From: an uncultured Bacilli bacterium
GTDB taxonomy: Bacteria; Bacillota_I; Bacilli_A; RF39; UBA660
DNA length: 32,321 bases
Assembly (NCBI GenBank): GCA_944371445.1
Contig: CALVXR010000071.1
Location: 1-32,321 of the forward strand
Reading direction: 5' to 3'
Shown here: in pieces, positions 27,851-30,669 of the stretch
Numbering within the stretch: position 1 is the stretch's first letter
Layout of the letters: every line of letters begins with the position of its first letter
Translations under genes and position numbers: made by a program
Notes under the pieces: model-generated
What the model was told of the DNA's origin: nothing
Seen by the model: the letters and a program-made list of their open reading frames with translations, nothing else
Databases searched by the model: none

Positions 27851-27892
27851 AACAATATATTTCTTATGGAGGAACTAGTATTATATAAAATT

Positions 27893-28065
27893 ATTAAAGA
27901 GAGGATATGTTTGGTGTAAATATCTATAACTTTATATAAGAAGACATCCTATAAAAACATAAGCGCTAAGTGGCGTTAAAACTATAAGTGCACAGTTATC
28001 TGTGAAATAAGGTGGTACCGCGGAATTATTCGTCCTTATATACATAATGTATATAGGACTTTTTT
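27893..28065 (+). promoter_or_regulatory. T-box riboswitch controlling hisS-aspS
   Basis: The leader shows AGAGAGGA (27898-27905), the GGTG element (27913-27916), and the specifier-loop sequence GAA-GAC-A (27940-27946) before TCCT, which pairs with AGGA. The T-box sequence GGTGGTACCGCG (28011-28022) follows, and then the terminator. In the canonical register the specifier is GAC (Asp, 27943-27945); CAT (His, 27945-27947) overlaps it by one base. The UGGU bulge (28013-28016) would pair with a tRNA ending ACCA, or GCCA by wobble. Uncharged tRNA binding should favour the antiterminator and switch on both synthetase genes. Confidence 0.9.
28032..28065 (+). terminator. T-box attenuator terminator
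   Basis: GTCCTTATATACAT (28032-28045) pairs with ATGTATATAGGAC (28047-28059), with one bulged T, followed by six T. The left arm competes with the antiterminator helix formed by the T-box sequence. Confidence 0.9.
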
Positions 28066-28082: not shown

Positions 28083-29357
28083 ATGATACAAAGACCAAAA
28101 GGAACTTATGATGTTTATGGAGTAAAAGCAAAAAAAATACTATATTTAGAAAAATTAATTAATGTACTTATGGAAAAGTATAACTATAATTATATAAGAA
28201 CACCACTTTTTGAAAAAAGTGAACTATTTCATAGAGCAGTAGGAGAAACTACCGATATAGTTACTAAAGAAACATATGATTTTAAAGATAAATCAGATAG
28301 AGATATGACACTTCGTCCAGAAGGTACAGCATCAGTAGTAAGAGCATACATAGAAAATAAAATGTACTCTGATCCTAATTTACCAAGTAAAAATTACTAT
28401 ATAGGACCTATGTATAGATATGAAAGACCACAATCAGGAAGATATAGAGAATTTTATCAGTTTGGAGTAGAAGTATTTTCATCAAATGATCCTATGATAG
28501 ATGCAGAGGTAATAAGTATTCCAGTAAATTTTTACAAATTATTAGGCCTTAAAGGAGTTAAAGTAAAAATAAATACACTTGGAGATACTGAATCTAGAAA
28601 TAAATATAAAGAAGCATTAATAGAATATTTTAAACCATACTTAGATTCGTTATGTGAAGATTGCAAAAATAGATATTTAAAAAATCCACTACGTATATTA
28701 GATTGTAAAGTAGATAATGATAAAGAATTTTTTAAAGATGCACCTAAAATGAGAGATTATTTAAATGAAGAAAGTAAAAATTATTTTGAAAAAGTTCAAA
28801 AATATTTAGATGCTTTAGAAATAGAATATGAAGTAGATTATTCGATAGTAAGAGGACTAGACTATTATAATCATACTGTATTTGAAGTAGAAGCAAGTGT
28901 AGAGGGTTTTGGTGCCCAAAATGTATTATGTGGTGGTGGTAGATATAATGGCCTTGTAAAAATGATTGGCAACACTGACGAACCTGGAGTAGGTTTTGCT
29001 CTTGGATTTGAAAGACTTTTAACTGCTTTAGAATTTGAAAATATAAATCTTCCTTATGAAGATGAAATAGATGTATATGTAATACCTGTAGGTGAAAAAG
29101 AAACTGCATTTAGTTTACTTCAAGCACTTAGATTAAATGGATTTAAAGCAGATACTGATTATATGGATAGAAGTATTAAAGCAAACTTTAAACAAGCAGA
29201 TAGATTAAACTCTAAATATGTAATAATTATAGGTGAAGAAGAAGTAAAAAATGGTATATATAAAATAAAAAATAATAAAACAAAAGAAGAATTTGAAATA
29301 AACAAAGAAGATATAATAGATTTTTTAGATCAAAACATAGATAGTGAGGAGATGTAA
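28083..29357 (+). CDS. hisS: Histidyl-tRNA synthetase
   Basis: The 424-residue class II synthetase charges tRNA-His. Motif 2 is in YRYERPQSGRYREFYQFGVE, the His-specific peptides are VRGLDYYNHTVFE and GGGRYNGLV, and motif 3 is GVGFALGFERL. The C-terminal anticodon-binding domain follows (about 320-420). Length and order are normal. AAGGAGG lies before the ATG, directly after the T-box terminator. The aspS start codon lies 1 base after its stop, with the aspS ribosome site inside the last hisS codons. Confidence 0.95.
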   Translation: MIQRPKGTYDVYGVKAKKILYLEKLINVLMEKYNYNYIRTPLFEKSELFHRAVGETTDIVTKETYDFKDKSDRDMTLRPEGTASVVRAYIENKMYSDPNLPSKNYYIGPMYRYERPQSGRYREFYQFGVEVFSSNDPMIDAEVISIPVNFYKLLGLKGVKVKINTLGDTESRNKYKEALIEYFKPYLDSLCEDCKNRYLKNPLRILDCKVDNDKEFFKDAPKMRDYLNEESKNYFEKVQKYLDALEIEYEVDYSIVRGLDYYNHTVFEVEASVEGFGAQNVLCGGGRYNGLVKMIGNTDEPGVGFALGFERLLTALEFENINLPYEDEIDVYVIPVGEKETAFSLLQALRLNGFKADTDYMDRSIKANFKQADRLNSKYVIIIGEEEVKNGIYKIKNNKTKEEFEINKEDIIDFLDQNIDSEEM

Positions 29358-29358
29358 T

Positions 29359-30669
29359 ATGAAATTATTTGTAAAAGAACTACCTAATCATTATAATGAA
29401 AATATTTCATTTCAAGGATTTGTAGACAAAATAAGAGACCTTCAATATGTACAATTTATGATACTTAGAGATAGTACTGGTAAAGTGCAAGTAACAATAG
29501 AAAAAAATGAAGAAAATAAAAAACTAAATGAAATAGTATCTAGTATTACTTTAGAAAGTACAGTAAAAGTAGAAGGTAAACTTTTAGAAAGCCCTAGCGT
29601 AAAAATGGGAGGTATGGAAATAATACCAAGTGATATTATAGTTACTAGTAAATCATTAAATGAATTACCATTTGATTATAAAAGTAAAGATAATAGTTTA
29701 AGAGAAACTAGATTAGATTATCGTTTTATAGATTTAAGAAGAGAAGAAAACAATTTATTTTTTAAATGTGAAACATTATTTGAACATGCTTTTAGAGAGT
29801 ACTGTATAAATAATGGCTTTATGGAAATACATTCTCCTAAAATAGGAAAAAAAGCTGCTGAAAGTGGTGCTGAAGTATTTAAACTAGATTACTTTGGACA
29901 GGAAGCAACTTTATCACAGTCTCCACAATTTTATAAACAAATGGCAATGGCATCAGGATTTGATAAAGTATTTGAAATAGGTCCAGCTTTTAGAGCAGAA
30001 AATTCACATACTTCTTATCATGCTACTGAAATAAATATGGCTGATATTGAAATATCTTGGATAGATAGTGTTGAAGAAGTTATGGATATGGAAGAAAAAG
30101 TTTTAAAATATGCTTTATCTAAAGTAAAAGAAAAATACGGTGAAGAAATAAAAAAACATTTTAAATCCGAAATAGGAGATCTAAGTGTTAAATTTCCAAG
30201 AATTACATTTAAAGAAGCTAAAGAAATATTAAAAGAAAAATATCATTATATTGGTGAAAAAGAAGAAGATTTTGAAAGAAAAGAAGAAATGCTTTTATGT
30301 AAATATGCTAAAGAAAAATATAATAGTGATTTTATCTTTGTTACTAAATTTCCATTTAGTGCAAGACCTTTTTATCATATGTTAGATGAAAATGGTCTTA
30401 CAGAAAGTTATGATTTACTTTATAGAGGTGTTGAAATTACAACAGGAGCTCAAAGAGAACATAGAGTTGATATATTAGAAAAACAAATGATAGAAAAAGA
30501 AATTAATCCTAGAGAATTAGATTACTATTTAGATTTCTTTAAATATGGCTGCCCTCCACATGGTGGATATGCTATTGGAATAGCAAGAATTATGATGCAA
30601 ACATTTAATATAGATAATATTAGAGAAGCAACATTTATCTATAGAGGACCAACTAGATTAAATCCTTAA
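29359..30669 (+). CDS. aspS: Aspartyl-tRNA synthetase, archaeal/eukaryotic type
   Basis: The 436-residue class II enzyme has an N-terminal OB-fold (about 1-100) and a catalytic domain without the GAD insertion of bacterial AspRS (about 590 residues). LSQSPQFYKQMAMASGFDK identifies AspRS and not AsnRS, which has SGQ at this place. Motif 2 is EIGPAFRAENSHTSYH. Motif 3 reads PHGGYAIGIARIMM with Arg410, where most class II enzymes have ER and this one has AR. This form is often called aspartate-tRNA(Asn) ligase and may charge both tRNA-Asp and tRNA-Asn, which would need GatCAB. The ATG at 29359 has GAGGAG 7 bases upstream; an in-frame GTG at 29344 has no such site. Its expression is linked to hisS by the T-box. 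Confidence 0.88.
   Translation: MKLFVKELPNHYNENISFQGFVDKIRDLQYVQFMILRDSTGKVQVTIEKNEENKKLNEIVSSITLESTVKVEGKLLESPSVKMGGMEIIPSDIIVTSKSLNELPFDYKSKDNSLRETRLDYRFIDLRREENNLFFKCETLFEHAFREYCINNGFMEIHSPKIGKKAAESGAEVFKLDYFGQEATLSQSPQFYKQMAMASGFDKVFEIGPAFRAENSHTSYHATEINMADIEISWIDSVEEVMDMEEKVLKYALSKVKEKYGEEIKKHFKSEIGDLSVKFPRITFKEAKEILKEKYHYIGEKEEDFERKEEMLLCKYAKEKYNSDFIFVTKFPFSARPFYHMLDENGLTESYDLLYRGVEITTGAQREHRVDILEKQMIEKEINPRELDYYLDFFKYGCPPHGGYAIGIARIMMQTFNIDNIREATFIYRGPTRLNP

What the first reader, a model, noticed from the sequence alone, without database searches (positions are those of the whole stretch)
27893..28065. T-box before hisS reads Asp in the canonical register, with an overlapping His codon
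The specifier loop reads GAA-GAC-A-TCCT. By the usual GAA-NNN-purine layout the codon is GAC (Asp), although hisS is the first gene. CAT (His) begins at the last base of GAC. The UGGU bulge can accept G73 of tRNA-Asp by wobble but not the C73 usual for bacterial tRNA-His. The switch may therefore sense tRNA-Asp for both genes, or be a dual-codon T-box; a two-codon T-box has been reported in Clostridium acetobutylicum.
Basis: partly seen in the sequence, partly recalled or inferred. Interest (0 to 1): 0.6.

Follow-up and report, generated by a model that had tools for sequence, protein, structure and literature searches.

The report
Aspartate T-box before hisS-aspS operon
An ordinary RNA switch that senses uncharged aspartate tRNA sits in front of the histidyl- and aspartyl-tRNA synthetase genes of a gut-type Bacilli bacterium; the overlapping histidine codon is a by-product of the switch's layout and is repeatedly lost in relatives while the aspartate codon is kept.

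Summary
Window 27860-28040 is a T-box (Rfam RF00230, 112.5 bits) before hisS-aspS. The specifier loop is GAAGACA, with GAC in the standard register and CAU overlapping it. The Asp reading is supported and the dual-codon reading is not.

(1) I read 112 hisS leaders with a T-box from Bacilli relatives. All have an Asp codon (110 GAC, 2 GAU) and UGGC or UGGU, which fit G73 of tRNA-Asp. Eleven lack any CAY (GACAG, GACAA, GACGY, GAUAC, GAUAG), in at least 9 changes on a HisRS tree. None keeps CAY without an Asp codon.
(2) The last base of 'CAU' is paired in Stem I (U27947-A27873) and covaries with its partner. The same overlapping CAY occurs in Asn, Ile, Tyr, Phe and Leu T-boxes of this family.
(3) In one relative family hisS and aspS are apart; hisS has no T-box and the GACAC T-box precedes aspS.
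(4) A true His T-box (plasmid pHDC) puts CAC where GAC sits here.

So it is an Asp T-box that brings hisS along. GACAC hisS-aspS T-boxes, and the suggestion of tRNA-Asp or dual sensing, are already published. This is a new member of a known kind, with comparative evidence against dual sensing.

The parts
27860..28040 (+). T-box leader (Stem I to antiterminator)
   Evidence: RF00230, 112.5 bits, full-length model match
27870..27873 (+). 5' strand AGGA of the Stem I helix closing the specifier loop; A27873 pairs with U27947
   Evidence: MFE fold; covarying G-C/A-U pairs in relatives
27874..27880 (+). 5' side of the specifier (E-) loop, ACUAGUA
   Evidence: AGUA is conserved in the family T-boxes
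27940..27946 (+). 3' side of the specifier loop, GAA-GAC-A
27943..27945 (+). specifier codon GAC (Asp), positions 2-4 from the 3' end of the loop
   Evidence: register as in TBDB and as in the other T-boxes of this genome; conserved in 112 of 112 leaders
27945..27947 (+). overlapping CAU; its U is base-paired in Stem I; judged not to be a specifier
   Evidence: lost in 11 leaders
28009..28037 (+). antiterminator AAGG...CCUU carrying the T-box bulge
28013..28016 (+). UGGU bulge pairing with the NCCA end of the tRNA; U28016 opposite G73 of tRNA-Asp (G-U wobble)
   Evidence: own tRNA-Asp G73
28032..28065 (+). intrinsic terminator hairpin (28032-28059) and U tract, mutually exclusive with the antiterminator
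   Evidence: z = -5.0
28083..29357 (+). hisS, histidine--tRNA ligase
   Evidence: TIGR00442, 485 bits
29359..30669 (+). aspS, archaeal/non-discriminating-type aspartate--tRNA ligase
   Evidence: NF003483 487.5 bits; TIGR00458 371.6 bits against cut-off 368.4

Best explanation
This is a transcription-attenuating T-box riboswitch specific for tRNA-Asp. The anticodon of tRNA-Asp (GUC) pairs with GAC 27943-27945. When the tRNA is uncharged, its 3' GCCA end pairs with the UGGU bulge and stabilises the antiterminator, so RNA polymerase reads through into hisS-aspS. Charged tRNA-Asp leaves the terminator to form. hisS is carried along because it lies ahead of aspS in the operon. The overlapping CAU arises because a codon ending in C is followed by the usual purine A and then by the pyrimidine that closes Stem I. 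The anatomy, codon conservation and discriminator fit are shown here; tRNA binding and antitermination are inferred from the T-box family.
For: RF00230 match and fold with GAC in the standard register (register rule in PMC7778990). The same position gives the expected codon in other T-boxes of this genome: asnS AAC, pheS UUC, valS GUA, metG AUG. 112 of 112 hisS leaders with a T-box carry Asp (110 GAC, 2 GAU), and 11 lack CAY: L068 GACGU, L152 GACGC, L089/L116/L126/L147/L208 GACAG, L141/L210 GACAA, L121 GAUAC, and the same-genus G004 GAUAG. The HisRS tree needs at least 9 changes of this trait. The bulge is UGGC in 75 and UGGU in 37 of 112, never UGGG or UGGA, with at least 13 changes between C and U; both letters can pair with G73, and tRNA-Asp is G73. 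Wherever the downstream side could be read, a hisS T-box had aspS in the operon, and the 23 evaluable hisS loci without nearby aspS had no T-box. In family f6 (G041, G052) hisS and aspS are apart; the T-box (GAAGACAC, UGGU) precedes aspS and none was found at hisS. The Y of CAY is paired and covaries (G-C 39, A-U 31, G-U 4 of 81). Y stands there in 51 of 53 other T-boxes of the family, and given NNC-A in 24 of 26, against 102 of 110 here.
Against: No experiment. CAY is kept in 101 of 112 leaders, more often than in NNC T-boxes of other genes taken together (24 of 35, Fisher p = 0.005, relatedness not corrected); the excess comes from A rather than G or U after the codon, not from Y. It remains odd that hisS would follow Asp rather than His supply. 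tRNA-His of this very genome was not seen.
Confidence: 0.93

Rival explanations
1. Dual-codon T-box: the loop can present GAC to tRNA-Asp or, shifted by two bases with the top pair of the helix opened, CAU to tRNA-His, so that either starvation induces both genes.
For: CAY present in 101 of 112 leaders. Dual sensing of hisS-aspS T-boxes has been suggested (PMC4342826, citing Gutierrez-Preciado 2009). A two-codon T-box (tRNA-Asn/tRNA-Glu) is known from C. acetobutylicum (PMC4052509).
Against: CAY is lost at least 9 times while the Asp codon is kept. Its last base is helical and covaries. The same CAY occurs in T-boxes of asnS, ileS-type, tyr-, phe- and leu-type leaders. It persists in front of aspS without hisS in family f6. 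N of UGGN follows G73 of tRNA-Asp.
Confidence: 0.05
2. His-specific T-box read in a non-standard register.
For: hisS is the first gene.
Against: 11 leaders have no His codon in the loop; no leader has CAY without an Asp codon. A true His T-box (Tetragenococcus pHDC, hisS without aspS) has CAC in the standard register (specifier also in PMC5313534).
Confidence: 0.01
3. Relict or non-functional T-box.
For: None found.
Against: Full-length model match, intact UGGU, antiterminator and terminator; conserved specificity over 112 leaders.
Confidence: 0.01

Closest known systems
hisS-aspS T-box with GACAC in the specifier loop (bacilli, lactobacilli; Gutierrez-Preciado et al. 2009 as cited in PMC5313534 and PMC4342826)
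   Same: Same operon, same GAC plus overlapping His codon, same UGGC/UGGU bulge; tRNA-Asp proposed as the main ligand.
   Different: GACAU instead of GACAC in this window; the aspS is the short non-discriminating type. Both are small variations seen in other relatives.
Two-codon T-box of Clostridium acetobutylicum (Saad et al. 2013, as cited in PMC4052509)
   Same: Overlapping candidate codons in one specifier loop.
   Different: There both tRNAs were shown to bind; here the second codon is not conserved and its last base is paired.
His-specific T-box of hisS in histidine decarboxylase clusters (pHDC, L387)
   Same: T-box before hisS.
   Different: CAC sits in the standard register, the bulge is UGGA, and no aspS follows on that plasmid stretch.

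Membership tests
T-box riboswitch (RF00230) | covariance-model match above the gathering score | tested here: met
   112.5 bits against 93
T-box riboswitch (RF00230) | Stem I specifier loop with AGUA/GAA E-loop, UGGN bulge, competing terminator | tested here: met
T-box riboswitch (RF00230) | tRNA-dependent antitermination | not testable with these tools
   needs in vitro transcription
Asp-specific T-box | Asp codon in the standard register, conserved | tested here: met
   112 of 112 leaders
Asp-specific T-box | UGGN compatible with the discriminator of tRNA-Asp | tested here: met
   UGGU or UGGC only; tRNA-Asp G73
two-codon (His + Asp) T-box | both codons conserved across orthologous leaders | tested here: not met
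   CAY absent in 11 of 112, at least 9 changes on the tree
two-codon (His + Asp) T-box | both codons unpaired in the loop | tested here: not met
   U of CAU pairs with A27873; covarying pair in relatives
two-codon (His + Asp) T-box | binds both tRNAs | not testable with these tools
   experiment needed

The most novel reading that the evidence does not exclude
In those leaders that keep GACAY, including this one, tRNA-His can still bind in a frame shifted by two and give weak antitermination on His starvation, i.e. a leaky or lineage-specific two-tRNA switch.
Probability: 0.05. Interest if true: 0.5.

Novelty: new member of a known kind. Interest (0 to 1): 0.25.

Why it matters
It answers by comparison a published suggestion that hisS-aspS T-boxes sense two tRNAs. 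Natural leaders that lost the His codon at least nine times, and aspS-only operons that keep GACAC, point to tRNA-Asp alone. This means HisRS supply in these bacteria follows aspartate charging. It also warns that overlapping codons in T-box loops arise from layout and should be tested against other T-boxes before being called dual.

Tried and rejected
UGGN as sole proof: rejected, because the true His T-box on pHDC has UGGA. A Stem-I covariance model to read the codons: not built; mafft scattered the specifier columns, so loops were read by eye from printed sequence. Automatic pattern picking mis-chose some sites and was not used for the codon tally. RNA fold z-score for Stem I is uninformative (0.14). 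tRNA-His search in the own genome with a B. subtilis-type and a same-genus probe: nothing. L220 looked like a T-box without aspS, but aspS lies one gene further on. The curated list gives L332 (asnS) as UGGC; it is UGGU, so UGGC occurs in three Asn and one Ser leader, none reading an A73 tRNA. aspS-only loci of family f22 have no T-box, so they say nothing either way. The 2008 and 2009 T-box surveys and the 2013 two-codon paper were not held; they are cited through papers that describe them.

Full report
What is there. The window holds one T-box, 27860-28040 (+), RF00230, 112.5 bits, full length. hisS (TIGR00442) and aspS (NF003483/TIGR00458, short non-discriminating type) follow. Folding Stem I alone gives AGGA 27870-27873 paired with UCCU 27947-27950, an internal loop of 7 + 7 nt (ACUAGUA / GAAGACA), then the upper stem. 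The antiterminator with UGGU 28013-28016 and a competing terminator with a U tract to 28065 are intact.

Register. TBDB takes the specifier as bases 2-4 from the 3' end of the loop (PMC7778990). This gives GAC here. The same rule gives the expected codon in other T-boxes of this genome: AAC for asnS, GUA for valS, UUC for pheS, AUG for metG. In TBDB's terms CAU would be frame +2, which TBDB does not consider.

Comparative test. hisS leaders were collected from named species genomes and from genomes of the same family and class. 112 carry a T-box: 109, plus G002, G004 and G007. Every one has an Asp codon, 110 GAC and 2 GAU. 101 have GACAY. Eleven have no CAY: GACAG five times, GACAA twice, GACGU, GACGC, GAUAC, and GAUAG in G004, which belongs to the same genus as the window. 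None has CAY without an Asp codon. On a HisRS tree the CAY trait changes at least 9 times.

Bulge and discriminator. UGGC in 75 and UGGU in 37 of the 112, changing at least 13 times, never A or G. tRNA-Asp has G73 in this genome and in relatives. tRNA-His has G-1 and C73 in the relatives' genes read, including four of the same genus. In other T-boxes of the family UGGC occurs only with Asn and Ser codons; the others have UGGU. A true His T-box (pHDC hisS, L387) has CAC in the standard register and UGGA, so lack of complementarity to C73 does not by itself exclude a His T-box; the constancy of C or U does fit Asp.

Why CAU is there at all. The base two places 3' of the codon closes the Stem I helix. 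In 81 leaders where the helix could be placed it is G-C 39, A-U 31, G-U 4 with its partner (the register was chosen for best pairing, but with a fixed 7-nt loop the same trend holds, G-C 28 and A-U 27 with no G-U). It is a pyrimidine in 51 of 53 T-boxes of other genes in this family. Of 35 other T-boxes with a codon ending in C, 24 have an overlapping CAY, among them all Asn and Ile leaders of the set. Given NNC-A, the pyrimidine is present in 24 of 26 of them and in 102 of 110 hisS leaders. There is therefore no sign of selection for a His codon beyond the layout. These counts are not corrected for relatedness.

Gene association. Among hisS loci with enough flank, T-box leaders have aspS in the operon in every case that could be judged; in L220/L389 aspS is one gene further on, L045 ends at a contig edge, and L141 could not be judged. 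The 23 evaluable hisS loci without nearby aspS have no T-box. In same-family relatives other genes stand between the T-box and hisS: a nitroreductase in G002 and G007, an AAA+ protein in G004. In family f6 (G041, G052) hisS and aspS are about 6 kb apart on one contig; the T-box, GAAGACAC with UGGU, lies directly before a small gene and aspS, downstream of hisS, and hisS has none. A GACAC T-box that cannot act on hisS is the clearest sign that the element belongs to aspS.

Mechanism. Shown here: anatomy, codon, bulge, terminator and conservation. Inferred from the T-box family: uncharged tRNA-Asp pairs with GAC and UGGU, stabilises the antiterminator, and lets polymerase into hisS-aspS.

What is known. 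PMC5313534 reports that GACAC in hisS-aspS specifier loops was noted by Gutierrez-Preciado et al. 2009, who suggested that it mainly interacts with tRNA-Asp. PMC4342826 cites the same review for a suggestion that the element adopts two structures and senses both tRNAs. The two-codon T-box of C. acetobutylicum (tRNA-Asn/tRNA-Glu) is described in PMC4052509. The finding is thus a new member of a known kind; what is added is comparative evidence that favours tRNA-Asp alone.

Noticed in passing
29359-30669 (+): aspS scores as aspartate--tRNA(Asn) ligase (non-discriminating type), although the same genome has asnS under its own Asn T-box (L003) and gatB (L392); either it is discriminating despite its type or both routes to Asn-tRNA exist.
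   Followed up: partly
L364, L346, L350: In same-genus and same-family relatives the Asp T-box is separated from hisS by an inserted gene: a nitroreductase in G002 and G007, an AAA+ ClpX-like protein in G004.
   Followed up: partly
L005, L007, L008, L010, L011: In the same genome T-boxes stand directly before a dUTPase-like gene, a small kinase-like gene, deoC, a CYTH-domain gene and an rnr-like gene, presumably first genes of operons that reach a synthetase further on. Names are by eye from translations.
   Followed up: no
G001, G003, G010, G017, G023, G027, G029: Several genomes of the same genus or family have only a distant HisRS (about 26-37% identity) instead of the window's type; in G005 a distant copy lies next to tRNA-His (L186).
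   Followed up: no
L393, L414: In family f6 the GACAC T-box controls a small acetyltransferase-like gene plus aspS, away from hisS.
   Followed up: yes
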